A stretch of 64,000 nt of DNA from positions 682,001 to 746,000 of the forward strand of contig NZ_CP027557.1 in NCBI RefSeq assembly GCF_014854695.1, written 5' to 3'. This DNA comes from Rhodococcus rhodochrous (GTDB lineage: Bacteria > Actinomycetota > Actinomycetes > Mycobacteriales > Mycobacteriaceae). The position numbers were made by a program, and so were the translations under genes. This document shows, in pieces, positions 9,249 through 27,290 of the stretch. Positions within the stretch are counted from its first letter, which is position 1. Every line of letters starts with the position of its first letter. Below the pieces are notes generated by a model. The model saw nothing but the letters and a program-made list of their open reading frames with translations, was not told where the DNA came from and did no database searches.

Positions 9249-9259
9249 CTTTTGTCAGC

Positions 9260-10927: not shown

Positions 10928-10935
10928 AAGGACAC

Positions 10936-12048
10936 ATGCAGACCGGCCTCAGCAAGAAGTTCGGTATCGAGTATCCGATCTTCGGATTCACGCCCTCCGA
11001 ACACGTCGCGGCGGCGATCAGCCGCACAGGCGGACTCGGTGTCCTCGGGTGCGTGCGGTTCAACGACCCGGAGGAACTCGACGCCGTTCTGACCTGGATG
11101 GACGAGAACACCGACGGCAAGCCGTACGGCGTCGACATCGTGATGCCCGCCAAGGTGCCCACCGAGGGCACCGCGGTGGACCTCGACAAACTGATCCCCG
11201 CCGAGCACCGTGCCTTCGTCAACCGCACGCTCGACGAACTCGGTGTGCCGCCGCTGTCCGACGACGTCGGCGAGGCGAGCGGTGTTCTGGGCTGGCTGCA
11301 TTCGGTCGCGCGTTCGCACGTCGACGTCGCCCTCGCGCACCGGCCCGCTCTGATCGCCAACGCCCTGGGGTCGCCGCCGAAGGACGTCATCGACCTCGCG
11401 CACGAGAAGGGAGTGCCGGTCGCGGCACTCGCGGGCGCGGTCGAGCACGCGAAGCGGCACGTCGAGAACGGTGTCGACATCGTGATCGCGCAGGGTTACG
11501 AGGCGGGCGGGCACACCGGTGAGATCGCGTCGATGGTGCTGTGGCCCGAAATCGTCGATGCACTCGGTGATTCCGCGGCAGTGCTCGCCGCCGGCGGCGT
11601 GGGATCGGGACGGCAGGTCGCGGCGGCGCTGGCCCTCGGTGCGTCCGGTGTGTGGATGGGTTCGTACTGGCTCACCACCTCGGAGTACAAGCTCGGGGCG
11701 GCCGCGCACGGCCCGTCGTCGATCCAGCGCGCGTTGCTCGGAGCGAGCTCGTCCGACACCGTGCGGTCGCGGATCTACTCGGGCAAGCCCGCGCGTCTGC
11801 TCAAGACCAAGTGGACGGAGGCGTGGTCGAAACCCGATGCGCCCGAACCGCTGCCGATGCCGTTGCAGAACATACTCGTGAGCGAGGCGCACCAGCGCAT
11901 GTCGGCGGCCGACGACCCCGAGGCCGTCGCGATGCCGGTCGGGCAGGTGGTGGGGCGGATGAACGAGATCCGTCCCGTCGCGGAGATCATGGCCGAACTC
12001 GTCCGGGGCTACGACGAGGCGGTCGAGCGGCTGAACGAGGCGCGCTAG
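10936..12048 (+). CDS. Nitronate monooxygenase-family FMN protein (fadD19 operon)
   Basis: A 370-residue TIM-barrel flavoprotein of the 2-nitropropane dioxygenase/NMO family: FGIEYPIFGFTPSEHVAAA at the N terminus, VIAQGYEAGGHTGE with the family's catalytic-type His, and VLAAGGVGSGRQVAAALALG for FMN phosphate binding. Family members oxidise nitronates or act on CoA-thioester intermediates; IpdC of steroid ring catabolism belongs here. A GAAGGA ribosome site lies before the ATG. Eight bases separate it from fadD19, so KstR control is likely. A paralogue lies at 23303-24433 with its own KstR box. Nitronate as substrate seems unlikely in this context; a flavin oxidation of a steroid ester is inferred. 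Confidence 0.85.
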   Translation: MQTGLSKKFGIEYPIFGFTPSEHVAAAISRTGGLGVLGCVRFNDPEELDAVLTWMDENTDGKPYGVDIVMPAKVPTEGTAVDLDKLIPAEHRAFVNRTLDELGVPPLSDDVGEASGVLGWLHSVARSHVDVALAHRPALIANALGSPPKDVIDLAHEKGVPVAALAGAVEHAKRHVENGVDIVIAQGYEAGGHTGEIASMVLWPEIVDALGDSAAVLAAGGVGSGRQVAAALALGASGVWMGSYWLTTSEYKLGAAAHGPSSIQRALLGASSSDTVRSRIYSGKPARLLKTKWTEAWSKPDAPEPLPMPLQNILVSEAHQRMSAADDPEAVAMPVGQVVGRMNEIRPVAEIMAELVRGYDEAVERLNEAR

Positions 12049-12152: not shown

Positions 12153-12734
12153 TCAGCGGCGGACCAGGATCTTCAACAGCTCCTGGATCTGCGTGGCCGT
12201 GGGGGAGGGCAGGCTGTCGCGGCCGTACAGGAAGCCGATCCCCGCGTAGACGAGGGTGCCGGCGCGCAGCTCCGCTTCTTCCTCGCCGAAACCCAGTTCG
12301 AGGAAACAGTTTCGGACGACGGCCATGATGCGCTGGTCGAGTGCACGGACCGATTCGGCGACCTGCGGATCGCTGCGCGCCCACTCGCGCACCGCGACCT
12401 CGGCCTCCCAGGCGCGTTCGTCGACGAGCATCGCACCCATGTGGGCGAGCCGTTCGTCGACGGGCAGTTCTTCGAGGCTCGTCAGGCCGCGCGCGGCGTC
12501 GTTGTCCTGCGAGGTGTAGCGGGTGGCGATGGCCTTCATCAGGTCGTCGATGTCGGAGAAGTGCCAGTAGAAGCTACCTTTGGTGACTCCGAGTTCGTCG
12601 CACAGTCGCGAGATCTTCACGGCGCTGCGTCCTTCGGAGACGAGCAGGCGCAGACCCGCCTCGGTCCAGTCGTCGAGGGACAGCCGTGGTCGTCTGCCCG
12701 ACCGGCGACCACTCCTCGCCGGTTGCTCTGCCAC
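12153..12734 (-). CDS. TetR/AcrR family transcriptional regulator
   Basis: A 193-residue one-domain repressor. The basic N terminus (GRRSGRRPRLSLDDWTEAGL) is followed by the helix-turn-helix ISRLCDELGVTKGSFYWHFSD (about residues 41-61). The C-terminal part is an all-helical ligand domain. The start is GTG at 12732-12734; no ATG alternative fits. An 8-bp inverted repeat begins 14 bases upstream (12748-12773) and is its likely operator. It is not KstR, whose helix-turn-helix sequence differs. Its target is either itself, the lipase-like gene upstream (same strand, ending inside the operator), or the oxidative operon at 13705. Confidence 0.88.
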   Translation of the reverse strand: MAEQPARSGRRSGRRPRLSLDDWTEAGLRLLVSEGRSAVKISRLCDELGVTKGSFYWHFSDIDDLMKAIATRYTSQDNDAARGLTSLEELPVDERLAHMGAMLVDERAWEAEVAVREWARSDPQVAESVRALDQRIMAVVRNCFLELGFGEEEAELRAGTLVYAGIGFLYGRDSLPSPTATQIQELLKILVRR

Positions 12735-12747: not shown

Positions 12748-12773
12748 GTCTCGATCGGGTCCGAAATCGAGAC
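12748..12773. promoter_or_regulatory. Candidate autoregulatory TetR operator
   Basis: GTCTCGAT (12748-12755) and ATCGAGAC (12766-12773) form perfect arms with a 10-base spacer, directly upstream of the TetR start codon. The outer arm touches the stop codon of the lipase-like gene. Confidence 0.55.
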
Positions 12774-13594
12774 TACATGCCCGAACCGGGCAGTGCCGTG
12801 AGGACGGCGTCGCGTGCCGAGCCGTCGCGGGGGAGTTCCCAATGGTGAACGCATGGTGACGAATCCGGCCCGGGAAGCGTGACCACGGTCGAGGTGGGCA
12901 GCGCTCCGTTCTCGGGTGGGACGACGAGTCCGTCGCAGCGGGAGACGATGTCGGTGTAGTCGATCCCGGCCGTGGGCACGCCGCGTGAGTGCAGGTCGCG
13001 TAGGAGATCCGATCCGGCGATGATCTCGCGGCATCCGGCACACAGGGGGTCGACGAGCGGCTTCTCGAGGGCGAGGACCGCGTCGTAGGTGCCGAGATCG
13101 CGGCTGGTCTGCTCGGCGGCGGCCAGTCCGGCGATCTCCGTGCCGTGCCACATCGGGCCGAGTGTGGTCAGCGATCGGACCCGATCGTTGCCGTGATCCT
13201 GCAGGTATCGCTGGGTGACGAGGGAACCGGCGCCGTGCGCCACGACGTCGACCGTGCACTGCGATCGCTGCCCGCACAGCTCGTCCAGGGCGTCGGCCAG
13301 GTCGCGTGCGCCCGCGTCGACGCTCCGCAGGCCGGCGAGGGGGATCGGGACATCGGTGCCCGCCGGTTGGCCCCAGGTGACGGGGACGGTGCAGAAACCG
13401 GCTCCGGTGAGGTCGGCGCGCAGATCGGACCACACGTCCGGAGTGCTCGCGAGGTCGTGGACGAGTGCCACAGCAGCGTCTGCGCCGGAGCACGGCGCAG
13501 GGCTCGGATCGGCCGCTGCGGGCGCCGGAGCCACCGCGGCGAGGGTGAGAACAGCGACCGCCGAAACCATCGCCGAGCAGGGGGATCGAGTCAT
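12773..13594 (-). CDS. Secreted class-2 lipase-like protein lacking the nucleophilic Ser
   Basis: A 273-residue protein with a Sec signal peptide (hydrophobic residues about 8-28, AAADPS cleavage region), then an alpha/beta-hydrolase domain of the lipase class 2 type. The nucleophile elbow that should read AHSxGG reads VVAHGAGSLV, with Gly121 in place of the catalytic Ser. The acid (YTDIVSRCDGLVVP) and the His near the C terminus (CVHHWELPRDGS) are still present. Five or more cysteines suggest disulphides. The start has AGGAG five bases upstream. It may be a non-catalytic binding protein, or active through another residue. It is divergent from the multicopper oxidase gene. Confidence 0.82.
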   Translation of the reverse strand: MTRSPCSAMVSAVAVLTLAAVAPAPAAADPSPAPCSGADAAVALVHDLASTPDVWSDLRADLTGAGFCTVPVTWGQPAGTDVPIPLAGLRSVDAGARDLADALDELCGQRSQCTVDVVAHGAGSLVTQRYLQDHGNDRVRSLTTLGPMWHGTEIAGLAAAEQTSRDLGTYDAVLALEKPLVDPLCAGCREIIAGSDLLRDLHSRGVPTAGIDYTDIVSRCDGLVVPPENGALPTSTVVTLPGPDSSPCVHHWELPRDGSARDAVLTALPGSGM

Positions 13595-13624
13595 CTGCAC
13601 TCCTCTGTGCGCACTATTGACCAA

Positions 13625-13639
13625 ACCATACCGTATGGT
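13625..13639. promoter_or_regulatory. Candidate operator between lipase-like gene and oxidative operon
   Basis: ACCATAC-C-GTATGGT is a perfect 7-bp inverted repeat around a single central base. It lies 30 bases upstream of the lipase-like start and 66 bases upstream of the multicopper oxidase gene. Compact palindromes of this type are typical of TetR-family repressors. It does not resemble the arms at 12748-12773. Confidence 0.55.
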
Positions 13640-13704: not shown

Positions 13705-15504
13705 ATGCAGAGACTCACCCGTAGAACCCTTCTCGCCGGGCTCGCCGCAGGAACCGGTGCGGTGCTTCTCGGTGGCCGAGCGTTCGCGGACGGGCCGGAC
13801 ATCTCCCGCCCCCTGTTGTTCCACTCCCCACGACTCGAACCCTTCGTCGACGGCCTGCCCGTCCTGCCGCGTCTGGACTCGTCGTCCTACCGGATCGACG
13901 CCGTCAGCACGATGCACAGCTTCCACCGCGACCTTCCGCCCGGTCCCGCTCTCGCCTACGGCGACAACACCTACGGCGGACCGACTCTCGTGGCGCACCG
14001 CGGGCAGGAGACGTCGATCGAGTACCGCAACCGCATCGACGCGCATCCCTTCGCCGTCGACTTCGACACCTCGCTGCACGGTCTGAGCGAACGCGACCGC
14101 ACCGACGTCCCCACCTCGATGCACCTGCACGGTGGGGTCACGCCTCCGGAATTTGACGGCAACCCCGAGCAGATCTCCCGGCCCGGACAGGGATTCACGT
14201 ACCGCTTCCCGAACCGTCAGGACGCGACGACGCTGTGGTACCACGACCACGCCATGGCCGTCACCCGCCTGAACGCCTACGCGGGACTGGCCGGCATGTA
14301 CCTGCTCCGCGACGACTACGACACCGGACTGCCCGGCAACCCGCTGGGCCTGCCCACCGGCGAGTTCGAACTCGATCTGGTGCTGCAGGAGAAGATCGTC
14401 AACGGCGACGGTTCGCAAAGCATCCGTTCCACCCCGATCGTCCCGCAGGGTCGCTGGGAGGGCGGCGCCGTCGGCGACGTCGGCGTCGTCAACGGCAGGA
14501 TCTGGCCCGAGGCCCGGGTCGCGCGCGGGCTCTACCGGGTCCGGCTGCTCAACGCGGCGTCGTTCAGCATCTGGGACCTGCACTTCTCCAACGGCATGCC
14601 GTTCTGGGTGATCGGCATGGAAGGTGGCCTGCTCGATGCGCCGGTTCCCACGACCCGCGTGCGACTGTCGCCCGGCGAACGCGTGGACCTGCTCGTCGAC
14701 TTCGCGCAGCTCGACGCGGACGCCACCGTCGAATTGCGCAACTCCGAACCCGCCGCACCGCAGGCCGCGCAGATCGGTGCCGTGCTCATGCCGCTGTTCA
14801 TGCGCTTCCGAGCCGAATCCGGCCGCGGGTTCACCGGTCCGGTCCCGGACCGCCTGCGCGGCGGCCCCGGTCTTCCACCCGCGGTCGGGCCGATCCCGGT
14901 GCCGCAGAACGTACGGAACGTATCGCTGAGCCAGCCCTCGGAGGTGCGGATCCCGCCGTCGATCATGTCGCTGAACAACCTGATGTACCACAGCACCGAC
15001 ATCGAGATGCCGCGTCAGGGCACCGTCGAGCAGTGGAACATCGTCAACGCGACGCCCGACCCGCACCCGATCCACCTGCATCTGGTGCACTTCCGCGTTC
15101 TGGGACGGCAGGCGATCAACACCCTCGCGATGTGTGCGCGGCAGCCGCAACCGCCCATCGGGCTCAAGTGGACGCCCGATCCCGACCCGTACGTCGTCGA
15201 ACCGATGCGGGGACCGGAGCCGTGGGAGACCGGCTACAAGGACACGGTCGTCTGCGATCCGAACTCGGTGACCCGCATCATCGCGTACTTCCCGACCGCC
15301 GACGAACTCGGCTTCGACCCCGACGCGACGTTCTCGCGCGCGGTGCACACCTTCGATCCGCACCGCGCCGGCCACGGCAAACACGGTGACCACGCCGACC
15401 ACGGCGACACTGCCGGCGGCGACCTGCAGGGATATGTGTGGCACTGCCACATCCTCGACCACGAAGACCACGACATGATGCTCAAATACCGGACGGTGAC
15501 ATGA
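13705..15504 (+). CDS. Tat-exported multicopper oxidase
   Basis: A 599-residue three-cupredoxin oxidase. It begins MQRLTRRTLLAGLAAGTG with a twin-arginine signal, so it is exported folded with copper. Copper ligands are complete: HLHGG (His140, His142), WYHDHAM (His180, His182), HPIHLHLVHF in the third domain, and HCHILDHEDHDMM at the end (His580, Cys581, His582, His586, axial Met591). A His-rich segment (HGKHGDHADHGD) precedes the last motif and could bind extra copper. The layout resembles CotA/phenoxazinone-synthase types that oxidise phenols. It is the first gene of a seven-gene operon and overlaps the next gene by 4 bases. Confidence 0.9.
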   Translation: MQRLTRRTLLAGLAAGTGAVLLGGRAFADGPDISRPLLFHSPRLEPFVDGLPVLPRLDSSSYRIDAVSTMHSFHRDLPPGPALAYGDNTYGGPTLVAHRGQETSIEYRNRIDAHPFAVDFDTSLHGLSERDRTDVPTSMHLHGGVTPPEFDGNPEQISRPGQGFTYRFPNRQDATTLWYHDHAMAVTRLNAYAGLAGMYLLRDDYDTGLPGNPLGLPTGEFELDLVLQEKIVNGDGSQSIRSTPIVPQGRWEGGAVGDVGVVNGRIWPEARVARGLYRVRLLNAASFSIWDLHFSNGMPFWVIGMEGGLLDAPVPTTRVRLSPGERVDLLVDFAQLDADATVELRNSEPAAPQAAQIGAVLMPLFMRFRAESGRGFTGPVPDRLRGGPGLPPAVGPIPVPQNVRNVSLSQPSEVRIPPSIMSLNNLMYHSTDIEMPRQGTVEQWNIVNATPDPHPIHLHLVHFRVLGRQAINTLAMCARQPQPPIGLKWTPDPDPYVVEPMRGPEPWETGYKDTVVCDPNSVTRIIAYFPTADELGFDPDATFSRAVHTFDPHRAGHGKHGDHADHGDTAGGDLQGYVWHCHILDHEDHDMMLKYRTVT

Positions 15505-16676
15505 CTTCCACCAGTTCCACCACGACCCGAGACCACTTCCAGCGCATCCCGTACGAACCGGCGAACGACGGTCGCGTCGAGATGCACTCCGGGCTCAGCC
15601 GCCACTACCCGACGCTGCACGGCAACCTCGTCGCGCAACCCGGGTACTCGAAGGACGTCGGTGTGGTCATGTGCCACCCGGCCTCGAACTTCCTGAGCCA
15701 CTTCCTGCTCCGCGCCTTCGCCGAAGCAGGCGTCCCCGCAATGGGACTCAACACCCGCTACTCGTCCAACGAACCGGCACTCATCATGGAGCGGGCCGCC
15801 TTCGACCTCGGCACCGGAGTGCGGTGGATGACCGACGAACTCGGCTTCGAGAAGGTCGTACTCCTCGGGTTCAGCGGCGGCGGGTCGCTCGCGTCGTTCT
15901 ACCAGTCGCAGGCGCAGAACTCGACCGTGACGACCACACCCGCGGGCGACCCGGCACCGTTCGCCGAGGCGAACCTGCGACCGGCCGACGCCCTGATGCT
16001 CGTCGGCGCGCACCCCGGCCGAGCACGCGTTCTCCGGCACTGGATCGACGGCGCGGTCACCGACGAATCCGACCCCTACGCCACCGATCCCGATCTCGAC
16101 CTCTACGCCCCCGGGCGCACGGCACCACTCGATTCCGAATGGGTGCAGAGGTACCGCGACGCGCAGCTCGCCCGCATGCGCCGCATCGACGCGTGGGCGC
16201 TCGAGCAACTCGCCGACCTCGAACGCACCGGCGCCTCCGATCGCGGCTTCGTCGTGCACCGCACCGTCGCGGATCCGCGCTTCGTCGACCTGAGCCTCGA
16301 CCCGAGCGACCGCGCACTCGGCTCCATGTACGGAGATCCGAAGGCGGCCAACACCGCCGCCGGTGGACTGGCCCGCTTCGTCACGGTGCGCAGCTGGCTC
16401 AGCACGTGGAGCGTCGACCACACCCACGCCGACGCACTCACCGACCTCCGCAACGTCACCACCCCGACGATGGTGATGAGCCTGCTCGGAGACCAGGCGG
16501 CCTTCGCCGAGGATTCCCGGCTGATGTACGACGCGCTGGCGGGCACCCACAACGAACTGATCGAGATGCGGAACCTCAACCACTATCTCGTGGATCAACC
16601 GGACGGTCTCTCCGACGTCGTCGGACGACTGGTCGAGTGGATCCGCCGAACGGTACTCGAGGAGGTATCGGCATGA
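15501..16676 (+). CDS. Alpha/beta hydrolase
   Basis: A 391-residue hydrolase without a signal peptide. The elbow VVLLGFSGGGSLASFYQ carries the nucleophilic Ser; a late Asp (MSLLGDQAAFAEDSR) and a His (EMRNLNHYLVDQPDG) complete a likely triad. The region between is longer than usual and probably forms a lid. It overlaps its neighbours on both sides by ATGA, so it is translated together with the multicopper oxidase and the DUF2236 protein. It is likely to cleave an ester, thioester or C-C bond in an intermediate of this operon's substrate. The precise subfamily is not recognised. Confidence 0.82.
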   Translation: MTSTSSTTTRDHFQRIPYEPANDGRVEMHSGLSRHYPTLHGNLVAQPGYSKDVGVVMCHPASNFLSHFLLRAFAEAGVPAMGLNTRYSSNEPALIMERAAFDLGTGVRWMTDELGFEKVVLLGFSGGGSLASFYQSQAQNSTVTTTPAGDPAPFAEANLRPADALMLVGAHPGRARVLRHWIDGAVTDESDPYATDPDLDLYAPGRTAPLDSEWVQRYRDAQLARMRRIDAWALEQLADLERTGASDRGFVVHRTVADPRFVDLSLDPSDRALGSMYGDPKAANTAAGGLARFVTVRSWLSTWSVDHTHADALTDLRNVTTPTMVMSLLGDQAAFAEDSRLMYDALAGTHNELIEMRNLNHYLVDQPDGLSDVVGRLVEWIRRTVLEEVSA

Positions 16677-17950
16677 CCCGAACACTCGCCGGTCCCGGAC
16701 GCACCGCACAGGACCGATGCCCGAGCGCCTTCCCCTACTGGCAGGCGCTGGAGAAGCCCGGGGTGAAGCGCACCCGCAACCTCGTCCGACGGCTCACCGG
16801 CTTCGACTTCCTGCCCACCGACGAACAGGCCCGGGCCCTGTGCAACGACCTGTTCAGCGGCGATCCCACGGCGGAGCGCTTCGTCGACGAGGTCTACCAC
16901 GGTGAACTCGGGCCGAAGAAGACCCGCGAGATGCTCGACAAGGCACTCGTCGACGGCATCGACTCGCTCGACGACGTGCCCGACGCGATGAAGGCCCTGT
17001 TCGAGGAGTTCGAGACCGTGCCCGACTGGGTGCAGCCCGAACTCGTCGAGCAGGGTGCCGCGATCTGGCGTCGCTGGGGCACGATGCTGTTCAGCTTCGC
17101 GGGCGCCGAGACCCTCGAGATCTACACCGAGGCAGCCGTCGCGACACCGCTGTCGCTCGCCGGAGGTTATGCCGGCGACAACGCTCTGCGACGTTTCCTC
17201 GAGACCTGCCGGTTCTGGATCGACGTATCCGAACCCGGCGCGCTGCTCGCCCCGGGTTCGAAAGGGCGGGCCACCGCGCTGAAGGTCCGCGTGATGCACG
17301 TGTCCGTGCGCTCACGCGTCGCGAAACACCCCGAATGGGACATCGCCAAGTGGGGACTGCCGATCAGCCAGACCTACATGCTGCTCACCCTCATCGCCGG
17401 CAGCCTCACCCCGGGTCTGGCCCTGTGGACCCTCGGCTACCACACCACCCCGCGAGAGATCCGCGCGCTCATCCACTTCCAGAAGTACATGGGCTACCTG
17501 CTCGGGGTGCGTATGCAGTGGTACCCCGAGACCATCGCCGACAGCATCCGCGCGCTCATGAGCACCGTGATCTCCCGCTCGTACGACTCGGGTGAGCACG
17601 GCAAGGAACTCATCGAGTCCTACCCGCAGGCGTTCGCCCCGCGCGACGGGCACCGCGGCCTGAAGAGACTGCGGGAGCACTACAACTTCCGCATCAACTC
17701 GGTGTACTCGGCGATGTTCATGGGGCCGGGCACCCGACGCAAGTACTCGATGCCGAAAGTGCTTCCCTGGATGATCATCCCGATCGTCCGCTTCCCGCTC
17801 ATCACCGCGATGGAACTCACCCGGCGGTTCGTCCCCGGCGCGGCCGGCGTGCACGAGAAGATCATGTGCGCCCATCGCGAGAACTGGTACCGCGCCCAGA
17901 TGGAAGGGCGCGAAGCACAATTCGACGCCAGCGGAGCACTCCGTCGCTGA
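16673..17950 (+). CDS. DUF2236 oxygenase (MpaB / latex-clearing-protein-like)
   Basis: A 425-residue, mostly helical protein with the DUF2236 signature: RVMHVSVR with His209 at the expected haem-ligand position, then WDIAKWGLPISQTYMLLTL, and YMGYLLGVRMQWYPETIAD. The family includes Lcp, a b-type haem dioxygenase that cleaves polyisoprene, and MpaB, which cleaves a farnesyl side chain of a prenylated phenol. Unlike secreted Lcp there is no signal peptide. A hydrophobic stretch near residues 355-375 (VLPWMIIPIVRFPLI) may tether it to the membrane. It is coupled to the hydrolase upstream. An oxidative cleavage of an isoprenoid-like or fatty chain is a reasonable expectation. Confidence 0.85.
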   Translation: MTRTLAGPGRTAQDRCPSAFPYWQALEKPGVKRTRNLVRRLTGFDFLPTDEQARALCNDLFSGDPTAERFVDEVYHGELGPKKTREMLDKALVDGIDSLDDVPDAMKALFEEFETVPDWVQPELVEQGAAIWRRWGTMLFSFAGAETLEIYTEAAVATPLSLAGGYAGDNALRRFLETCRFWIDVSEPGALLAPGSKGRATALKVRVMHVSVRSRVAKHPEWDIAKWGLPISQTYMLLTLIAGSLTPGLALWTLGYHTTPREIRALIHFQKYMGYLLGVRMQWYPETIADSIRALMSTVISRSYDSGEHGKELIESYPQAFAPRDGHRGLKRLREHYNFRINSVYSAMFMGPGTRRKYSMPKVLPWMIIPIVRFPLITAMELTRRFVPGAAGVHEKIMCAHRENWYRAQMEGREAQFDASGALRR

Positions 17951-17998
17951 TCGGCCCGGACAGTCCCGCCCCACTAGACCTCGTACGGAGAGAACTCG

Positions 17999-19051
17999 AT
18001 GACCCTACACATCGTCGAAGCATGGAACGGCCCCGGACGCCGCGACGGTGAGATCACCGCCGTGGAGGCCGCCGACAACGGTGCCCACCCGTCCACCGAC
18101 AAGCACGCCTTCGAACACTGGTACTTCGACGCCCATCTCGACGACGGACGGATCGTCGTGGCGATGATCCAGACCCGGGAACTGGTGCACCGCAAGCCCG
18201 GTGTGGAGATCCACGTCTACAGCGCGGACGGCAAGCGACGCGAAGCGAGCCGGTCGTACACCGACGCCGACCTCTCGGTGTCCACCGAACGGTGCGACGT
18301 GCGCGTCGGTGAGAGCTTCGCGAAGCTGATCGGCGAGGAGGACGGGCTGCCCGTCTACCGCGTGTCGGTGTCCGAAGGCGACCTCGCCTTCGACCTGACC
18401 TTCACCGCGGAGGTCCCGCCGTGGATGCCCGGTCGCGGCCGGACCAGCTACAACGAACGCGAATTCTTTGCGTGGGTCGTCGGCGCGCCGCGAGCGCGAG
18501 TCGCGGGGACGGTGACGGTGGACGGGAAGTCCACCGAGGTCACCGGTCGCGGCTACCACGACCACAACTGGGGCGTCGGCGACATGAAGCGCCTCATCGA
18601 CAAGTGGTACTGGGGCCGGCTGTACACCGAGGACTTCACCCTCGTCTACGCCATGGTGAACACCCAGAAGAAGTACGGATCGCACTGGTCGCAGCCGGTG
18701 ATGGTCGCGCAGGGGCGCGAGGTGGTCCTCAGCAACGGCGAGGTGGAACTGACGGAGGGGCCGATCGTGCACAACGCGGTCGCCGACCGCACCTACCCGG
18801 CGTGGATCCGCCTCCGCATCCCGGGCTCGCTCGACGTCAAGCTCACCGTCCGCGAGATCGTGCACGCCCACAACCTGCTCGAGGACGTTCCACTCGCGTC
18901 GAGCAGGTTGCTCAAGCCTCTCGTCAACCGGCTCGTCGGTCATCCCGGTTACTTCCGCTTCCGGTCGGATTTCACGATGACGGTGACCGTCGACGGAACC
19001 GATCACGAGCGTTCGGGTTCGACGCTGCACGAGATGGTCGCGTTGACATGA
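17999..19051 (+). CDS. CrtC/AttH-like lipocalin-fold protein
   Basis: A 350-residue beta-rich protein resembling the carotenoid 1,2-hydratase/hydroxyneurosporene synthase (CrtC) and AttH group. Landmarks are [19 protein letters not shown] near the N terminus, then [21 protein letters not shown] and [18 protein letters not shown] in the middle. The family has two lipocalin-like barrels that hold hydrophobic, often terpenoid, ligands. Members act as hydratases, cyclases or pericyclases. It follows the DUF2236 gene after 48 bases (the largest gap in the operon) and overlaps hmgA by ATGA. No carotenoid genes are nearby, so hydration or binding of a terpenoid side chain is inferred from fold and context only. 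Confidence 0.78.
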
Positions 19052-20391
19052 GCGAGCGCGCGGACGTCGGTGTGGAGCCCGGCTTCGCGGGCATCGAGTA
19101 TCTGCACGGCTTCGGCAACGAGCACCACAGCGAGGCCGTTCCGGGTGTGCTTCCGTGGGGACAGAATTCGCCCCAGCGGGTCGCGTACGGGCTCTACGCC
19201 GAACAACACTCGGCCACCGCGTTCACCGAGCCCCGCGAGATCAACCGCCGCACATGGACGTACCGGATCATGCCGTCCGCCGCGCACGGTCCCTTCGAGC
19301 GGATCGACGACGCCGGCTGGGTGTCGGCACCCGACGCCGGGGGAGTGCTCACCCCGAACCGGTTGCGATGGGATCCGCAGCCGGAACCGGCACCGGGCAC
19401 GGACTTCCTCGACGGCGTGACGACCTACGCAGTCAACGGGGACGTCCGCGCCCGCACCGGCGTCGCCGTCCATCTGTACGCGGCGTCGCAGTCGATGACC
19501 GACCGTTACTTCGTCGACGCCGACGGAGAACTGCTGTTCGTCCCGCAGGACGGCGCGCTGCTGCTGTGCACCGAACTGGGACGGCTGCTCGTCGAACCCG
19601 GTGAGATCGCGGTGATCGGACGAGGTCTGCGGTTCCGCGTGGATCTGGTGAGTGAGAAGGCGACCGGTTACCTGCTCGAGAACTACGGGGCCGCCCTGGC
19701 CCTGCCGGAACTCGGCCCCATCGGCGCGAACGGTCTCGCCCACGCCCGCGACTTCCTGTACCCGACGGCCTGGTACGAGGACCGTTCGGGCACGGTGCAA
19801 CTCGTGCAGAAGTTCGGTGGGCACCTGTGGGCCACCGAACTCGACCACTCGCCCCTCGACGTCGTCGCCTGGCACGGCACGCACGGTGCCTACAAGTACG
19901 ATCTGGGCCGCTTCAACGCGATGACCACGGCCGGCTGGGACCATCCCGATCCGTCGATCTTCACCGTGCTCACCTCGCCCACCCCGATTCCGGGGCAGGC
20001 CAATGTCGACTTCTGTGTCTTCCCCGACCGCTGGGTGGTCGGGGAGCACACCTTCCGGCCGCCGCACTTCCACCGCAACGTCATGACCGAGTTCATGGGA
20101 CTCGTTCGTGGACAGCACGACTCGAAGGCGGAAGGATTCGTCCCGGGCGGCGCGTCGCTCCACAACCAGTGGGGCGCTCACGGACCCGACGTCGAGACCT
20201 TCGATCTCGCGACGTCGGCCGAACTGAAGCCGGTCAAGCTCGTGAACACCCTGTCGTTCATGTTCGAGACGAGACTCGCCCTCTCCGTCACCGACGCGGC
20301 CCATCGCGCAGCGCATCGCCAGCCGAACTACGACTCCTCGTGGTCCGGCCTCACCCGACGCTTCACCCCACCTTCTCCCCAGGAGTCGTGA
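19048..20391 (+). CDS. hmgA: Homogentisate 1,2-dioxygenase
   Basis: A 447-residue protein of full normal length and clear HmgA sequence ([20 protein letters not shown] at the N terminus). It opens the ring of homogentisate to maleylacetoacetate with non-haem iron. By alignment to the human enzyme the iron ligands fall on His342, Glu348 ([11 protein letters not shown]) and His378 (AHGPD), with the acid-base His at 299 ([11 protein letters not shown]); all are present. The maleylacetoacetate isomerase and fumarylacetoacetase that usually accompany it are not in this operon. It overlaps the CrtC-like gene by 4 bases and the dehydrogenase by 1, so it is integral to the operon. The substrate may be a substituted homogentisate. 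Confidence 0.93.
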
Positions 20392-21866
20392 TGACCGAAC
20401 TGTCCACCCCCGCACCCGTCGTCGTACCCGACCCGCAGCTGCGGATCGGCGGCCGGGCCGTGCCCGCCCGTTCGGGTGCCCACTTCTCGTCGATCAACCC
20501 GGCGACGGAAGAGGCCGTCGCCGAGGTCGCGGCGGGTGGGGCCGCCGACATCGACGCGGCCGTCCTCGCCGCGCGCGACACCTTCGAATCCGGTGTCTGG
20601 TCGCGGATGGCCGGTGCCGAACGCGGCCGGATCCTCTCCCGCGCCGCCGACCTCATCGAGCAGCACGCCCCCGAACTGTCGGCGCTCGAGACCGCGGAGA
20701 TGGGCAAGCTCTACGCCGACACCGTCGCCGGGGACATCCCCGTCGCCGCGGCGTCGTTCCGGCACTACGCAGGCTGGGCCGACAAGATCGCCGGTGAGGC
20801 GATGATCCTGCCCGATGTGGGTCCGCAGCACCGCTTCGGATTCACCCTGCGCCAGCCCCTCGGTGTGGTCGGTGCGATCACTCCGTGGAACAACCCGACG
20901 GTCGTCGCGGCCTGGAAGATCGCCCCGGCCCTGGCCGCCGGATGCTCGGTGGTCGTCAAGCCCGCCGAGGACGCTTCGCTGTCGACCCTGAAGCTCGCCG
21001 ACCTGCTCGCCGAGGCCGGAGTACCGGACGGCGCGTTCAACGTCGTGCCCGGTCTCGGTCCCGAAGCCGGTGCTGCGCTGGCCGCCCACGAGGGCATCGA
21101 CAAGATCACCTTCACCGGCAGCCCGGCCGTCGGGAAGACCATCACCTCGCTCGCCGGCGAGAAGTTCCGGAAGGTGACCCTCGAACTCGGCGGCAAGGCG
21201 CCGCAGCTGATCTTCCCCGACGCCGACCTCGAGGCGTCGCTGCCGTGGATCGCGATGGGCAACTTCTACCACCAGGGTCAGGTGTGTGCCGCCGGCACGC
21301 GCGTGATCGTGCACGAGTCGATCGCCGATCAGGTCGTCGAGGGACTCGTCGAGTTCGCCCGCGGAGCGGTGATCGGTGATCCCTTCGACGCGTCGACGAC
21401 GCAGGGCACCATCGTCAACCGCAAGCAGCTCGACCGCATCCTCGGCTACATCGAGAAGGGCAAGAACGAAGGCGCTCAACTGCTGACCGGCGGGTCGCGG
21501 GTGGGGGAGCGCGGTTTCTTCGTGGAGCCGACCGTCTTCCGCGGCACCAACGACCTCACCATCGCCCGCGAGGAGATCTTCGGCCCCGTCGCCACGGTCA
21601 TCACCTTCAAGACCACCGAGGAGGCCGTGCAGCTGGCGAACGCCACGAAGTACGGTCTCAACGCGTTCGTCTTCAGCCAGAACCTGTCGACCGTGCACAG
21701 CGTGATCCCGCAGTTGCGTGTGGGCACGGTGTGGGTCAACGGCTGGGGTGTCCCCGATCCGGCACTACCCTGGGGTGGACGTGACGCGAGCGGCATCGGG
21801 CGTGAACTGGGCCGCAGCGGGCTCGAAGCGTTCACCGAGGAGAAGACGGTTCACCTCGGTTACTGA
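20391..21866 (+). CDS. Aldehyde dehydrogenase (NAD(P)-dependent)
   Basis: A 491-residue ALDH-superfamily enzyme with all catalytic elements: PWNNP (about 165-169), FTGSPAVGK for the dinucleotide, general base Glu265 in LELGGK, and nucleophile Cys299 in FYHQGQVCAAGTR. It oxidises an aldehyde to the acid. The start codon overlaps the hmgA stop by one base (TGATG), and the CoA-transferase gene follows 19 bases later. An aldehyde made by oxidative chain cleavage upstream in the operon (DUF2236 oxygenase) followed by CoA transfer would be a coherent order of steps, but this is inferred. Confidence 0.9.
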   Translation: MTELSTPAPVVVPDPQLRIGGRAVPARSGAHFSSINPATEEAVAEVAAGGAADIDAAVLAARDTFESGVWSRMAGAERGRILSRAADLIEQHAPELSALETAEMGKLYADTVAGDIPVAAASFRHYAGWADKIAGEAMILPDVGPQHRFGFTLRQPLGVVGAITPWNNPTVVAAWKIAPALAAGCSVVVKPAEDASLSTLKLADLLAEAGVPDGAFNVVPGLGPEAGAALAAHEGIDKITFTGSPAVGKTITSLAGEKFRKVTLELGGKAPQLIFPDADLEASLPWIAMGNFYHQGQVCAAGTRVIVHESIADQVVEGLVEFARGAVIGDPFDASTTQGTIVNRKQLDRILGYIEKGKNEGAQLLTGGSRVGERGFFVEPTVFRGTNDLTIAREEIFGPVATVITFKTTEEAVQLANATKYGLNAFVFSQNLSTVHSVIPQLRVGTVWVNGWGVPDPALPWGGRDASGIGRELGRSGLEAFTEEKTVHLGY

Positions 21867-21885
21867 CCAGAGGACGGAAGAGGCA

Positions 21886-23136
21886 GTGACACAAGTCGAG
21901 TCGACACAAGGCGAGTCGACACAAGGCGAGTCGCAGGCAGCGGGAGCGCTGGCGGGCATCAGGGTGCTCGAACTGGGAACCCTGATCGCCGGTCCGTATG
22001 CAGGACGTCTGCTCGGCGACATGGGTGCCGACGTCATCAAGATCGAGGATCCGAAGCGTCCCGACCCGCTCCGCACCTGGGGACAGGGTGAGCGGGACGG
22101 GCATCGCTACTTCTGGACGGTGCACGCGCGCAACAAGCGTTGCGTCACCCTCGATCTTCGGGCGCCCGACGGGCAGGAACTGTTCCGGCGTCTCGTCGCC
22201 GAGTCCGACGTGGTGGTCGAGAACTTCCGTCCCGGCACGCTCGAGAAGTGGGGGCTCGGCTACGACGTGCTCTCCGAGATCAATCCGGGCATCGTGTTGG
22301 CCCGCGTCTCCGGTTACGGGCAGACCGGCCCCAAGGCCGGGCAGGCCGGTTACGCGTCGGTGGCCGAGGCGGAGAGCGGGTTGCGGCACCTCAACGGATA
22401 TCCCGGCCAGGCACCCCCGCGACTCGCGCTGTCCCTCGGCGACTCCCTCGCCGGGATGTTCGCCGTGCAGGGCATCCTCGCCGCGTTGCTCGGCCGCGAA
22501 CGGACCGGACGCGGGCAGGTCGTCGACGTGGCGCTCACCGAGGCGTGCCTCGCGATCCAGGAATCGGTGATCCCCGACTACGACGTCGCAGGGGTCGTCC
22601 GCGGCCCCTCCGGTACCCGCCTCGAGGGCATTGCCCCGTCGAACCTGTACCGGACGTCCGACGACATGTGGATCGTCATCGCCGCCAACCAGGACACGGT
22701 CTTCCGTCGCCTGTGCGCGGCGATGGAGCGCCTCGAGCTCGCCGACGACCCGCGCTTCGCCGACCATCTCGCGCGTGGCGTGAACCAGGACGAGCTCGAC
22801 GCCCTCATCGGTGAGTGGGCGGCGACGTGGACGCTCGACGACCTGCTGGCGCATCTGTCGTCGTCGGGTGTGGTGTCCGGGCCGGTGAACACGGTCGCGG
22901 AGGTCGTCGCCGATCCGCAGTTCCAGGCACGGGACATGATCGTCCCGCATCACGACGAGCGCACCGGCGCAGACGTACTCGGCCCGGGTGTGGTGCCGAC
23001 GCTCACCGGGACGCCGGGTTCGGTGCGTCGCGCCGGCCCGCCCGTCGCGGGATACGACAATGCGGCGGTCTACGGCGAGATCCTCGGACTGAGCGACATC
23101 GAGCAGAAGGAACTCCGCGAGCGGGGAATCATCTAG
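21886..23136 (+). CDS. Class III (CaiB/BaiF-type) CoA-transferase
   Basis: A 416-residue member of the formyl-CoA transferase family: GIRVLELGTLIAGPYAGRLLGDMGADVIKIE (landmark from residue 24 on), NKRCVTLDLR, VVVENFRPGTLEKWGLGYD, and RVSGYGQTGPK. The start is GTG at 21886. Where FRC-type enzymes have the aspartate that forms the acyl anhydride, this protein reads GYASVAEAESGL with Ala157, as some subgroups do. The first 16 residues contain a duplicated STQGE unit encoded by a 15-bp direct repeat. As last gene of the oxidative operon it probably activates the acid product as a CoA ester. A long palindrome follows the stop. Confidence 0.87.
   Translation: MTQVESTQGESTQGESQAAGALAGIRVLELGTLIAGPYAGRLLGDMGADVIKIEDPKRPDPLRTWGQGERDGHRYFWTVHARNKRCVTLDLRAPDGQELFRRLVAESDVVVENFRPGTLEKWGLGYDVLSEINPGIVLARVSGYGQTGPKAGQAGYASVAEAESGLRHLNGYPGQAPPRLALSLGDSLAGMFAVQGILAALLGRERTGRGQVVDVALTEACLAIQESVIPDYDVAGVVRGPSGTRLEGIAPSNLYRTSDDMWIVIAANQDTVFRRLCAAMERLELADDPRFADHLARGVNQDELDALIGEWAATWTLDDLLAHLSSSGVVSGPVNTVAEVVADPQFQARDMIVPHHDERTGADVLGPGVVPTLTGTPGSVRRAGPPVAGYDNAAVYGEILGLSDIEQKELRERGII
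21898..21927 (+). repeat. In-frame 15-bp tandem duplication
   Basis: GAGTCGACACAAGGC occurs twice in direct succession (21898-21912, 21913-21927), followed by a third partial copy. It encodes ESTQG-ESTQG-ES in the non-conserved N terminus of the CoA-transferase and is probably a slippage expansion. Confidence 0.8.
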
Positions 23137-23151
23137 CACGGCATCATCCGA

Positions 23152-23302: not shown

Positions 23303-24433
23303 ATGCACACGCCCATCTGCGACGAACTCGGCATCGAGTTCCCGATCTTCGCATTCACCCACTGCCGCGACGTTGTCGTCGCCGTCGCCAAGGCCGGCGG
23401 CTTCGGCGTCCTCGGCGCCGTCGGGTTCACGCCGGAAGAGCTCGAAATCGAGCTGAACTGGATCGACGAGCACATCGGCGACCGCCCGTACGGTGTCGAC
23501 ATCGTCATCCCCAACAAGTACGAAGGTATGGACGCGAACCTCTCCGCCGAGGAACTCACGAAGATGCTGCAGTCGATGGTGCCGCAGGAGACCCTCGAAT
23601 TCGGCCGTAAGATCCTCACCGACCACGGCGTCCCGCTGCCCGAAGGCGACGATAACGCGTTGCAGCTTCTCGGTTGGACCGAGGCCACCGCGACCCCGCA
23701 GGTGGAGGTGGCACTGCAGCATCCGAAGGTCACGCTCATCGCCAACGCGCTCGGCACCCCGCCGGCCGACATGATCGAGCACATCCACAAGGCCGGTCGC
23801 AAGGTCGCGGCGCTGTGCGGTTCGCCGAAACAGGCCCGCAAGCACGCCGACGCCGGTGTCGACATCATCATCGCCCAGGGCGGCGAAGGTGGTGGGCACT
23901 GCGGTGAGGTCGGCTCGATCGTGCTGTGGCCGCAGGTCGTCAAGGAGGTCGCACCGGTCCCGGTGCTGGCCGCCGGCGGTATCGGCAGCGGCCAGCAGAT
24001 CGCTGCGGCACTCGCGCTCGGCGCCCAGGGCGCGTGGACCGGTTCGCAGTGGCTCATGGTCGAGGAGGCCGAGAACACTCCGGTGCAGCAGGAGGCCTAC
24101 ATCAAGGCGAGCAGCCGCGACACCGTCCGCAGCCGCTCGTTCACCGGTAAGCCCTGCCGCATGCTCCGCAACGACTGGACCGAGGCGTGGGAGCAGGAGG
24201 GCAACCCGAAGCCCCTCGGAATGCCGTTGCAGTACATGGTGTCCGGCATGGCCGTCGCCGCCACCCACAAGTACCCCGACGAGTCCGTCGACGTCGCGTT
24301 CAACCCGGTCGGTCAGGTCGTCGGGCAGTTCACGAAGGTCGACAAGACCTCCACCGTCATCGAACGCTGGGTGCAGGAGTACCTCGAGGCGACCGGCACG
24401 CTGGAGAAGCTGAACGAGGCCGCGAGCGTCTGA
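23303..24433 (+). CDS. Nitronate monooxygenase-family FMN protein with own KstR box
   Basis: A 376-residue NMO/NPD-family TIM barrel: LGIEFPIFAFTHCRDVVVAVA at the start, IIAQGGEGGGHCGEVGSIVLWP with the family His, and VLAAGGIGSGQQIAAALALG for FMN binding. It is a clear paralogue of the protein at 10936-12048, with the same core and a shared C-terminal WTEAW motif; the two differ in the lid region. A GAGGAG ribosome site precedes the ATG. It is a single-gene unit ending 16 bases before the convergent DUF3253 gene. KstR control implies a role in sterol breakdown rather than nitroalkane detoxification. Confidence 0.86.
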   Translation: MHTPICDELGIEFPIFAFTHCRDVVVAVAKAGGFGVLGAVGFTPEELEIELNWIDEHIGDRPYGVDIVIPNKYEGMDANLSAEELTKMLQSMVPQETLEFGRKILTDHGVPLPEGDDNALQLLGWTEATATPQVEVALQHPKVTLIANALGTPPADMIEHIHKAGRKVAALCGSPKQARKHADAGVDIIIAQGGEGGGHCGEVGSIVLWPQVVKEVAPVPVLAAGGIGSGQQIAAALALGAQGAWTGSQWLMVEEAENTPVQQEAYIKASSRDTVRSRSFTGKPCRMLRNDWTEAWEQEGNPKPLGMPLQYMVSGMAVAATHKYPDESVDVAFNPVGQVVGQFTKVDKTSTVIERWVQEYLEATGTLEKLNEAASV

Positions 24434-26199: not shown

Positions 26200-27290
26200 C
26201 GGGTCGGCTCCGACACTGGCGGGACGAGCAGCGACACCGGATCCGGCACGGGTCGCCCGCCGCCGGTGAGTGCGTTCTCGAAGGGCGTGCCGAGCAGCAG
26301 TGCGTTCTCGAGGGTCGGCAGGGTGAGGTCGAGGATGACCGTGCCGTTCGCGTAGTCGCCGCGCACCGCGTTGCGGTAGGTGTCGATGGGGAACGGGAAG
26401 GTCAGCAGGTAGCGCAGCGACTCGGTGAGCGAGTCGCCCGCCGACGCGAGCGAGGCCAGCACCGGTTCGAGATCACGCAGGTTCGCGACGACGTCGTCGC
26501 CGCTCGCCTCGACGACCTCGTTCGCGACGCGCCCGAACTGCCCGAGCGCATCGGCGGCGCGGGTCAGGTCGTCGCGCTGGGTGGACAACACCTCCATGGC
26601 GGGCGCGAGATCGTCCGTCGCCGCCGCGATCTCGGTGTTGTGCTCGGCGACCTCGACGGCGAGTGCGTCGAGCGATTCCATCGCGCTCACGATCTGCTCC
26701 TTCTGGCCGTCCAGCCCGGCGAGCACCGCGTCGAGGCGGGTGAGCAGGGCCCGCACCGACTCCTGCCGTCCGTCCATCGCCCGGTTGAGTTCGCGGGTGA
26801 TCTCCTGGGCTTGGGCGAGGCCACCGCCGCTGAGCACCAGCGACAGCGACGACAGGGTCTGCTCGGTGGTGGGGAACGCACCCGCCCGCTCGAGGGGGAT
26901 GACGTCGCCGTCCCCGAGCCGGCCACGGGCGGGTTCGGCGAGCGGGGGAGAGAGTTCGACGTGGGCGGACCCGAGCAGGCTCGTCTGCCCGATCTTCGCG
27001 ACCGTGTTCTCCGGAAGCACCGTGCTGCCGTCGACCATCACCGTCACGAGCGCATGTCCGTCGCCGAGCCGCAGGTCGGCGACCCGCCCGACGGTGACGT
27101 CGCCGACGCGGACCCGTGAATTGCGTTCGAGGGTCGTGACGTCGGGCATCTCGATGGTCACGGCGAACGCGTCGTCGCCGCGACCGTGCGTGCCGGGAAG
27201 GGGCAGGCTGTTCAGGCCGCGCCACTCGCACCCGGCGGTCAGGGCCAGGCAGGCGAGGACACCGACCGCGCGCAGGACTCGTGTTCTCAC
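26196..27290 (-). CDS. mceE: MceE lipoprotein of second mce operon
   Basis: A 364-residue Mce lipoprotein starting at GTG 27288-27290. The signal sequence ends in the lipobox LTAGC, with the lipidated residue at Cys21, followed by EWRGLNSLPLPGTHGRGDDA, the usual start of MceE. The MCE domain (about 40-125) and a long helical region with PTTEQTLSSLSLVLSGGGLAQ follow. MceE is the lipid-anchored member of the hexameric lipid-transport assembly. The start codon overlaps the mceD stop (GTGA), and its own stop overlaps mceF, so the operon is tightly coupled. Confidence 0.9.
   Translation of the reverse strand: MRTRVLRAVGVLACLALTAGCEWRGLNSLPLPGTHGRGDDAFAVTIEMPDVTTLERNSRVRVGDVTVGRVADLRLGDGHALVTVMVDGSTVLPENTVAKIGQTSLLGSAHVELSPPLAEPARGRLGDGDVIPLERAGAFPTTEQTLSSLSLVLSGGGLAQAQEITRELNRAMDGRQESVRALLTRLDAVLAGLDGQKEQIVSAMESLDALAVEVAEHNTEIAAATDDLAPAMEVLSTQRDDLTRAADALGQFGRVANEVVEASGDDVVANLRDLEPVLASLASAGDSLTESLRYLLTFPFPIDTYRNAVRGDYANGTVILDLTLPTLENALLLGTPFENALTGGGRPVPDPVSLLVPPVSEPTR

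What the first reader, a model, noticed from the sequence alone, without database searches (positions are those of the whole stretch)
13705..23136. Seven-gene oxidative operon with no recognised pathway
Multicopper oxidase, hydrolase, DUF2236 (Lcp/MpaB-type) oxygenase, CrtC-like barrel protein, homogentisate dioxygenase, aldehyde dehydrogenase and class III CoA-transferase are joined by 1-4 base overlaps at four of six junctions, so they are one unit. HmgA has all iron ligands but its usual partners (maleylacetoacetate isomerase, fumarylacetoacetase) are missing. DUF2236 enzymes cleave isoprenoid chains and CrtC-like proteins handle terpenoids. Phenol-oxidising MCO plus homogentisate ring opening plus chain cleavage to an aldehyde, acid and CoA ester would suit a prenylated hydroquinone (tocopherol or quinone-like). 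The substrate is my inference; the gene content is seen.
Basis: partly seen in the sequence, partly recalled or inferred. Interest (0 to 1): 0.78.

Follow-up and report, generated by a model that had tools for sequence, protein, structure and literature searches.

The report
Probable prenyl-hydroquinone (vitamin E-like) breakdown cluster
A conserved gene cluster in Rhodococcus and relatives, usually beside a lipid importer, looks like an undescribed way to break down prenylated quinone lipids such as vitamin E, with an altered homogentisate dioxygenase to open the ring; the substrate is inferred, not shown.

Summary
The seven genes, coordinates and junctions are as described (four of six overlap, by 4, 4, 4 and 1 bases). 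The unit is conserved: all seven in this order in 10 of 18 genomes of the genus; HYD-DUF2236-CRTC-HmgA-ALDH consecutive in 18 of 20 full-form loci (Rhodococcus, Tomitella, Speluncibacter, Nocardia, Amycolatopsis). It has two parts. DUF2236 with TetR, often CRTC, sometimes MCO or COAT, occurs without the rest; hydrolase+HmgA+ALDH comes and goes as a block (about 11 changes on the DUF2236 tree), and Mce import genes lie beside 14 of 20 full loci but 1 of 44 without the block. A conserved palindrome precedes the first gene. The HmgA is probably not the tyrosine enzyme: the genome has another HmgA-like gene near a fumarylacetoacetase, and every cluster HmgA examined has His where P. putida HmgA has Tyr346. 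CRTC has the prenyl-hydratase Asp/Trp/Trp motif (nearest solved relative: kievitone hydratase); DUF2236 keeps the Lcp haem triad; the hydrolase recurs beside other HmgA-family genes. Best reading: a prenylated hydroquinone is cleaved to an arylacetaldehyde, oxidised to a substituted homogentisate and ring-opened. All reactions and the substrate are inferred.

The parts
12153..12734 (-). TetR-family regulator, divergent from the operon
   Evidence: PF00440; a homologue in 64 of 80 named DUF2236 loci, 14 of 20 full form and 50 of 60 others
12773..13624 (-). second hydrolase-like gene (abh0; start uncertain, 13471 or 13624), no Pfam match
   Evidence: in 8 of 20 full-form loci and 0 of 60 others
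13625..13639 (.). palindrome ACCATACCGTATGGT, proposed TetR operator, 65 bases between it and the MCO start
   Evidence: its 13-base core (MCATACNGTATGK) has one exact place in the own genome; one hit within 3 mismatches in the window, where shuffles give 0.51 on average; in the 80 named loci (1.51 Mb) 28 of 28 hits within 2 mismatches lie upstream of a cluster, regulator or mce gene, reversed-pattern control 0
13705..15504 (+). MCO: multicopper oxidase with a twin-arginine-like N-terminus (TRRTLLAG, read by eye), CotA / phenoxazinone-synthase type
   Evidence: CotA best solved match; copper motifs HLHGG, WYHDH, HPIHLH, HCHILDHEDHDMM
15501..16676 (+). HYD: alpha/beta hydrolase, S125/D331/H361 invariant in 35 aligned; proposed hydrolase of the ring-fission product
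   Evidence: alignment A3, AF2 pLDDT 93.6 and alpha/beta-hydrolase fold matches; beside an HgmA-family gene in 15 of 20 fetched HYD loci
16673..17950 (+). D2236: MpaB/Lcp-family haem oxygenase, R174/T178/H209 = Lcp R164/T168/H198
   Evidence: PF09995, Lcp 5o1m E 1e-11 with the profile, residues
17999..19051 (+). CRTC: CrtC/kievitone-hydratase-like prenyl hydratase or dehydratase; W41, D188, W203, W205 invariant in 36 aligned
   Evidence: PF07143, 7a0q by sequence, AF2 pLDDT 93.5 and fold matches, motif
19048..20391 (+). HMG: homogentisate 1,2-dioxygenase family, subfamily with His357 in place of P. putida Tyr346
   Evidence: TIGR01015, residues, tree
20391..21866 (+). ALDH: aldehyde dehydrogenase, best NCBIfam match phenylacetaldehyde dehydrogenase (607.8, below its cut-off 800)
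21886..23136 (+). COAT: class III (CaiB/BaiF) CoA-transferase
   Evidence: PF02515; a 67-70% identical homologue follows HMGlike-HYD in another cluster
23303..24433 (+). flavin oxidoreductase of the nitronate monooxygenase / FabK superfamily; possible quinone or enoyl reductase
   Evidence: PF03060; beside the operon in Rhodococcus loci
24988..33314 (-). Mce import operon (two YrbE-like and six Mce-like genes by position), convergent with the catabolic operon
   Evidence: PF02470 for 24988-26199; TIGR00996 over cut-off for the two proteins scanned; Mce genes beside 14 of 20 full-form clusters, 61 of 66 Mce proteins from full loci nearer to this operon than to the window's second one
9260..12048 (+). 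acyl-CoA synthetase (9260-10927) and a second NMO-family flavoprotein (10936-12048); possible accessory genes
   Evidence: beside the cluster in many Rhodococcus loci

Best explanation
A catabolic cluster for an imported prenylated hydroquinone or chromanol lipid (tocopherol, plastoquinol or similar). Proposed order: the exported MCO oxidises the phenol to the quinone form; the Mce system imports it; it is reduced to the hydroquinone inside the cell. CRTC adds or removes water at the tertiary carbon of the isoprene unit; for tocopherylquinone it would remove water and create the Ar-CH2-CH=C(CH3)-R bond. D2236 cleaves this bond as Lcp cleaves rubber, giving Ar-CH2-CHO and a methyl ketone. ALDH oxidises the arylacetaldehyde to a ring-substituted homogentisate. 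The His346-type HmgA opens the ring. HYD hydrolyses the ring-fission product in place of fumarylacetoacetase, and COAT activates an acid. Shown: gene content, conservation, block structure, palindrome, motifs, pocket residue. Inferred: every reaction, their order and the substrate.
For: D2236: Lcp relation with R174, T178 and H209, the three residues reported as haem-site and activity-critical in Lcp (passages of PMC5522427 and PMC6311187); Lcp products end in CHO-CH2- and -CH2-COCH3 (start of the abstract of PMC5522427), the aldehyde type ALDH would need. CRTC: nearest solved relative by sequence is kievitone hydratase (title), which hydrates the prenyl group of a phenolic isoflavonoid (start of the abstract of PMC5805349); D188/W203/W205 have the spacing of CrtC D268/W283/W285, whose mutants lose activity (PMC12402844 passages), and are invariant in 36 of 36 aligned; the fold also holds a 25-phosphosteroid lyase. 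ALDH nearest to phenylacetaldehyde dehydrogenase. HmgA: Fe ligands kept; His at Tyr346 in 34 of 34 loci rows from clusters or their remains, Tyr in 33 of 33 other loci rows and in 3zds; those 33 show no D2236, HYD, CRTC or MCO in the DNA held, 2.8 kb or more each. HYD: beside an HgmA-family gene in 15 of 20 fetched loci, in 11 of them a different, divergent HgmA-like gene, ten of these also with a COAT homologue. HYD, HmgA and ALDH all present or all absent in 58 of 63 well-flanked loci, with about 11 changes on the tree. Mce genes beside 14 of 20 full loci, 1 of 44 without the block. Palindrome. Separate HmgA-like/fumarylacetoacetase locus.
Against: No biochemistry, expression or growth data. 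The HmgA scores over the ordinary hmgA cut-off, so plain homogentisate is not excluded; His346 also arose once more in a metagenomic group of unknown context. ALDH, CRTC and MCO miss the cut-offs of the specific NCBIfam equivalogs. D2236 has Glu177 in place of the Lcp distal lysine and no signal peptide that I can see. Within the 60 non-full loci CRTC is in 38, MCO in 21, COAT in 6, and 20 have none of the three, so CRTC is not always needed with D2236. MCO is in 14 of 20 full loci; COAT in 8 of 20, and its homologue also occurs without D2236, so its step is unsure. L125 keeps ALDH without HYD or HmgA. L141 and L194 are full with 10-kb flanks but show no Mce genes; in L191 the Mce proteins are not nearer to the window's first Mce operon (1 of 3). 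In the window itself no palindrome stands before the Mce operon, and with one mismatch the reversed control pattern is commoner in the genome than the palindrome (11 against 6). Literature searches gave no report for or against.
Confidence: 0.56

Rival explanations
1. Second homogentisate/tyrosine-type pathway: HmgA cleaves plain homogentisate made from tyrosine or hydroxyphenylacetates, and the other genes are unrelated passengers.
For: TIGR01015 600.6 bits, over cut-off; Fe ligands, H288 and N333 equivalents kept.
Against: The genome has a separate HmgA-like + fumarylacetoacetase locus; Tyr346 is replaced in 34 of 34 cluster rows; HmgA is lost together with HYD and ALDH; two proteins named Amycolatopsis acidicola, on contigs of different length, are one Tyr346 and one His346 HmgA (P0030, P0079).
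Confidence: 0.15
2. Catabolism or detoxification of prenylated plant phenolics (prenyl-flavonoids, kievitone- or xanthohumol-like) or fungal meroterpenoids: CRTC hydrates and D2236 cleaves the prenyl group; ring opening acts on a fragment.
For: CRTC is related to kievitone hydratase, which also acts on xanthohumol (passage and figure legend seen in PMC5805349); the reduced form without ring cleavage could serve detoxification.
Against: HmgA needs a 1,4-dihydroxy ring with an ortho side chain (family knowledge), unlike flavonoid A-rings; the Mce link favours a lipid.
Confidence: 0.14
3. A terpenoid, carotenoid or steroid pathway in which the hydroquinone arises from an aromatised terpenoid ring; the Mce operon and neighbouring thiolase/ChsH2-like/FadD genes are part of it.
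For: Thiolase, ChsH2-like OB-fold protein, luciferase-like and FadD genes at 1317-10927; CrtC and 25-phosphosteroid lyase fold.
Against: In the maps close relatives of those neighbours accompany the cluster only in Rhodococcus loci; steroid ring A cleavage uses extradiol enzymes (general knowledge), not HmgA.
Confidence: 0.1

Closest known systems
Homogentisate central pathway (HmgA, maleylacetoacetate isomerase, fumarylacetoacetase)
   Same: HmgA family ring-opening dioxygenase with all Fe ligands; hydrolysis of the ring-fission product expected
   Different: Tyr346 replaced by His; no isomerase or fumarylacetoacetase in the operon; an alpha/beta hydrolase instead; joined to D2236, CRTC, ALDH, MCO and usually Mce genes
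Mycobacterium-type HMGlike-HYD-COAT cluster seen here (L207-L217, L223, L224); I did not search the literature for it
   Same: HgmA-family gene, then a homologue of HYD (38-41%), then (10 of 11 loci L207-L217) a homologue of COAT (67-70%)
   Different: HgmA of the divergent type; F420H2-quinone reductase and HMG-CoA-lyase-like genes (L223); no D2236, CRTC or window-type ALDH labelled in the L223 and L224 maps
Latex clearing protein Lcp / MpaB (DUF2236)
   Same: haem triad R/T/H; oxidative isoprenoid cleavage would give CHO-CH2- ends
   Different: no secretion signal seen, no distal Lys, clustered with aromatic-ring enzymes
Kievitone hydratase / carotenoid 1,2-hydratase CrtC
   Same: fold and Asp...Trp-x-Trp motif; water addition at a prenyl double bond
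   Different: below the equivalog cut-off of CrtC; possibly runs in the dehydration direction

Membership tests
Homogentisate 1,2-dioxygenase (TIGR01015) | score over curated cut-off; Fe ligands His/Glu/His | tested here: met
   600.6 vs 510.75 bits; H342, E348, H378
[quoted passage not shown]
   His in 34 of 34 loci rows from clusters or their remains; Tyr in 33 of 33 other loci rows and in 3zds
Homogentisate 1,2-dioxygenase (TIGR01015) | activity on homogentisate | not testable with these tools
   needs purified enzyme
Tyrosine-type homogentisate operon | fumarylacetoacetase and maleylacetoacetate isomerase beside hmgA | tested here: not met
   no such match among the eight proteins 13705-24433; fumarylacetoacetase found at another locus
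DUF2236 / Lcp haem oxygenase | PF09995 over cut-off and R164/T168/H198 | tested here: met
   62.1 vs 23 bits; R174, T178, H209
Latex clearing protein proper | distal haem ligand Lys167 | tested here: not met
   Glu177 at that place
Latex clearing protein proper | export from the cell | tested here: inconclusive
   no signal peptide seen by reading the N-terminus; no predictor was run
CrtC / kievitone hydratase | CrtC domain, catalytic Asp and two Trp | tested here: met
   34.3 vs 22.5 bits; D188, W203, W205 invariant in 36 sequences
Carotenoid 1,2-hydratase equivalog | NCBIfam cut-off 400 bits | tested here: not met
   26.6 bits
Phenylacetaldehyde dehydrogenase StyD equivalog | NCBIfam cut-off 800 bits | tested here: not met
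   607.8 bits, best match of 44 families
Multicopper oxidase | Cu-oxidase domains and copper motifs | tested here: met
Mce transporter-linked catabolic locus | the same Mce operon beside the cluster across genera | tested here: met
   Mce genes in 14 of 20 full-form loci vs 1 of 44 without the block; in 13 of the 14 most of the genes found are nearer to the window's first Mce operon than to its second, L191 being the exception
Prenyl-hydroquinone (tocopherol/plastoquinone) degradation | growth on, or conversion of, such a lipid | not testable with these tools
   needs strain and metabolite work

The most novel reading that the evidence does not exclude
This is a dedicated bacterial route for mineralising prenylquinone and chromanol lipids (vitamin E, plastoquinone): Mce import, prenyl (de)hydratase, haem cleavage of the first isoprene bond to an arylacetaldehyde, oxidation to an alkylated homogentisate, opening by a new His346 subfamily of homogentisate dioxygenase, and hydrolysis by an alpha/beta hydrolase that replaces fumarylacetoacetase.
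Probability: 0.42. Interest if true: 0.88.

Novelty: new variant of a known kind. Interest (0 to 1): 0.72.

Why it matters
Plant tocopherols and plastoquinone enter soil in quantity (general knowledge), yet the listings of four searches of one open-access library showed no described bacterial pathway for them; one search found 346 papers and I saw the ten listed. The cluster makes the question testable: seven defined genes, a predicted operator and a single changed active-site residue. It would also assign a substrate class to one Mce importer, give roles to a DUF2236 enzyme and a CrtC-like enzyme, and define a homogentisate-dioxygenase subfamily and a non-homologous fumarylacetoacetase substitute, which source names give as ordinary homogentisate 1,2-dioxygenase and 'alpha/beta hydrolase'.

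Tried and rejected
Rejected: (1) 'HmgA lacks partners so the pathway is unknown': a separate HmgA-like/fumarylacetoacetase locus is in the genome. (2) Internal stop codons reported in HmgA matches: in the seven loci checked, the only stops inside an alignment (L069, L071) lie at the last residues, so they are C-terminal ends; L070 matches in two frames (broken or a sequencing error) and was left as it is. (3) Strict single-unit model: refuted by block loss. (4) Calling CRTC a Diels-Alderase because CghA and Fsa2 rank highest by VIA-align: shared fold only; kievitone hydratase is the only sequence relative below E 0.01 (one further hit at E 0.92 looks like noise). (5) HYD fold search: generic alpha/beta hydrolases (monoglyceride lipase, HsaD and others), not informative about substrate. 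(6) Literature: the listings gave no report of tocopherol or prenylquinone degradation genes in these genera; two searches found no paper; Jeoung 2013 is not held, so its Tyr346 statement is taken from a passage of PMC6337169. (7) First full/reduced label count (12 changes) included loci cut by contig ends; recounted with 11 of these unlabelled: 11 changes, at least 9 forced by starred branches. L125 (ALDH kept, HYD and HmgA absent) was put with the remnant group.

Limits: gene calls in relatives come from my own simple caller. Several named and G-handle loci are the same genome fetched twice (for example L103/L118, L112/L074), so locus counts are not counts of independent genomes; the 33 Tyr346 rows stand for 28 genomes. 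The 80 named loci are the best 80 of 118 and anchored on D2236, so they cannot show HYD or HmgA without D2236. Outside that anchor: of 45 HmgA matches in the class search 30 gave loci, and one more (L114) was fetched; His346 was seen there only in the own, G067 and G136 clusters; the other 14 were not read. One HYD relative at 55% (L201/L218) sits beside an FAD ring hydroxylase with no D2236 labelled on its 9-kb contig. Treekit's origin labels for L124 (Cyanobacteriota) and L136 (Frankiaceae) look mistaken.
Full report
OBSERVATION. The seven ORFs exist at the stated coordinates with junctions -4, -4, +48, -4, -1 and +19 bases. Pfam and NCBIfam give multicopper oxidase, no family for the hydrolase (HYD; one weak NCBIfam hit far below cut-off), MPAB_Lcp_cat, CrtC, HgmA_N/HgmA_C (TIGR01015 over cut-off), aldehyde dehydrogenase and class III CoA-transferase. 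The genome (6.09 Mb, unnamed) lies among Rhodococcus: the DUF2236 gene matches Rhodococcus sp. CH91 at 90%.

CONSERVATION. HmgA search in 18 genomes of the genus: 12 have it. In 10 of the 18 (own included) all seven genes stand in this order (one of them, L110, has HmgA in two frames, on L070); one more (L108) is cut by a contig end; in one (L111) MCO, HYD, DUF2236 and CRTC are gone, HmgA lacks its normal N-terminal part and ALDH is short. R. phenolicus (L042/L123), one of the six without HmgA, has HYD, HmgA and ALDH reduced to scraps while MCO, DUF2236, CRTC and COAT stay; the other five were not mapped. In 397 genomes of the order, DUF2236 has ortholog-like matches in 24 (10 at 60% or more, 14 at 47-52%), then a gap to 36%. 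Nine of those 14 were mapped and show no operon gene next to it (weak ALDH and TetR matches kilobases away in L052 and L056).

TWO BLOCKS. A scan of named genomes with the DUF2236 alignment gave 118 relatives, best 80 kept. Twenty are 'full' (HYD and HmgA at 75% or more of their length): Rhodococcus, R. spelaei, R. qingshengii, Rhodococcus sp. KRD197, Tomitella, Speluncibacter, six Nocardia, Amycolatopsis acidicola, Dietzia aerolata and Gordonia hirsuta; HYD-DUF2236-CRTC-HmgA-ALDH are consecutive in 18 of 20 and all seven in 8 of 20. The order is not universal: Gordonia hirsuta has HYD-DUF2236-HmgA up to its contig end, and G067 (L050) has HYD-DUF2236-HmgA-ALDH-CRTC. Of the 63 loci that one search counted as well flanked, 44 have none of HYD, HmgA and ALDH, 14 have all three, 5 are partial or scraps (L123, L125, L138, L166, L167); 17 edge loci were set aside. 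The 60 non-full loci hold TetR in 50, CRTC in 38, MCO in 21 and COAT in 6; 20 of them have none of CRTC, MCO and COAT. On a DUF2236 tree of 68 rows (edge loci without the block left out) the full state needs 11 changes, at least 9 forced, against 18 for shuffled labels. So HYD, HmgA and ALDH behave as one functional block added to a DUF2236-centred core.

IMPORTER AND OPERATOR. At least two Mce-operon families lie within the fetched stretch in 14 of 20 full loci, 1 of 5 partial and 1 of 44 without the block. Of the six full loci without this, L118, L120, L124 and L127 are cut by a contig end (L127 shows one YrbE of another type), and L141 and L194 have room but none. Of 66 Mce proteins from full loci, 61 are nearer to the window's first Mce operon (24988-33314) than to its second; the exceptions are in L127 (1 of 1), L191 (2 of 3), L160 (1 of 4) and L197 (1 of 6). 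The palindrome ACCATACCGTATGGT at 13625-13639 is the only exact place of its 13-base core in the genome. That alone is not striking: at one mismatch the reversed pattern was commoner (11 against 6). In the 80 named loci, however, 28 of 28 hits within two mismatches (some overlapping) fall upstream of cluster, regulator or mce genes, in 24 loci, with none for the reversed control. It moves with whichever gene comes first, MCO, DUF2236 or HYD, and in Tomitella biformata also stands before YrbE. Fifteen of 20 full loci have it; the other five, all Nocardia, carry a three-mismatch form before HYD. In the window no copy stands before the Mce operon.

HmgA. The genome has another HmgA-like gene (51.7 bits to TIGR01015) with one gene between it and a fumarylacetoacetase over its cut-off, so the operon copy is probably not needed for that role. 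In an alignment of 189 rows (window and P. putida included), 34 of 34 loci rows from clusters or their remains have His where P. putida has Tyr346, and 33 of 33 other loci rows (28 genomes, mostly family f33, which I take to be Streptomyces) have Tyr; Fe ligands are constant apart from one gap. The 33 show no D2236, HYD, CRTC or MCO in the DNA held. On the tree (186 rows) 77 His346 rows form one group (SH-aLRT 99); a second group of 10 rows gained His separately. [quoted passage not shown] I infer a changed, probably ring-substituted, substrate.

CRTC, DUF2236, HYD. CRTC (AF2 pLDDT 93.5) has one clear solved relative by sequence, kievitone hydratase 7a0q (title). Its Asp and Trp-x-Trp align and have the same spacing as CrtC D268/W283/W285, whose mutants lose activity (PMC12402844 passages). 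The fold also includes a 25-phosphosteroid lyase (titles), which suggests elimination at a tertiary carbon is possible in this fold. DUF2236 carries the Lcp haem triad (PMC5522427 and PMC6311187 passages) but not the distal Lys. HYD relatives occur in 75 of 397 genomes of the order at E 1e-20. Of the 20 loci fetched, 15 stand beside an HgmA-family gene: this operon (3), a divergent HgmA-like gene (11, ten also with a COAT homologue) and a gene 64% like the window organism's other HgmA (1); two stand beside an FAD ring hydroxylase, three beside neither (the three operon loci). This suggests that HYD hydrolyses HgmA-type ring-fission products.

MECHANISM. Oxidative cleavage of Ar-CH2-CH=C(CH3)-R by a Lcp-type enzyme would give Ar-CH2-CHO; ALDH, nearest to phenylacetaldehyde dehydrogenase, would give Ar-CH2-COOH, which for a hydroquinone is a (substituted) homogentisate, the HmgA substrate type. 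This accounts for the order of steps and for the block structure: core first, ring block after. With MCO (phenol to quinone) and a CRTC acting as dehydratase, tocopherol fits as well as prenyl-quinols do; tocopherylquinone chemistry is from general knowledge. HMG-CoA-lyase-like genes in some relatives (family k38, one member scanned: L126; others include L129, L132, L160 and L188) and in the Mycobacterium-type cluster suggest that a CoA ester is split by a lyase; which acid this is remains open.

VERDICT. Real, conserved and coherent; substrate class inferred with moderate confidence. New variant of a known kind (homogentisate-type ring cleavage with a prenyl-cleaving front end and an importer).

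Noticed in passing
L223 5979-13972; L224; L207-L217: Second cluster in Mycobacterium/Nocardia-type genomes (genomes unnamed, type inferred): divergent HgmA-like, HYD homologue and COAT homologue, with (mapped in L223) acyl-CoA-dehydrogenase-like, F420H2-quinone reductase and HMG-CoA-lyase-like genes.
   Followed up: partly
10 protein rows among P0067-P0091: Independent His346 group of HmgA, nearest to rows that include a Streptosporangiaceae MAG; genomic context unknown.
   Followed up: no
window 39236-49301: A second Mce operon; 61 of 66 Mce proteins from full-form loci are less like it than like the first.
   Followed up: partly
window 907-8185: SnoaL-like, two luciferase-like, two thiolase-like, ChsH2-type OB-fold and FadD genes, resembling side-chain retro-aldol modules (resemblance from general knowledge).
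   Followed up: no
L041 8268-9149: 293-aa protein without Pfam match between the fumarylacetoacetase and the divergent HmgA-like gene.
   Followed up: no
window 12773-13624: Second hydrolase-like gene (abh0) next to TetR, in 8 of 20 full-form and 0 of 60 other loci, no Pfam match.
   Followed up: no
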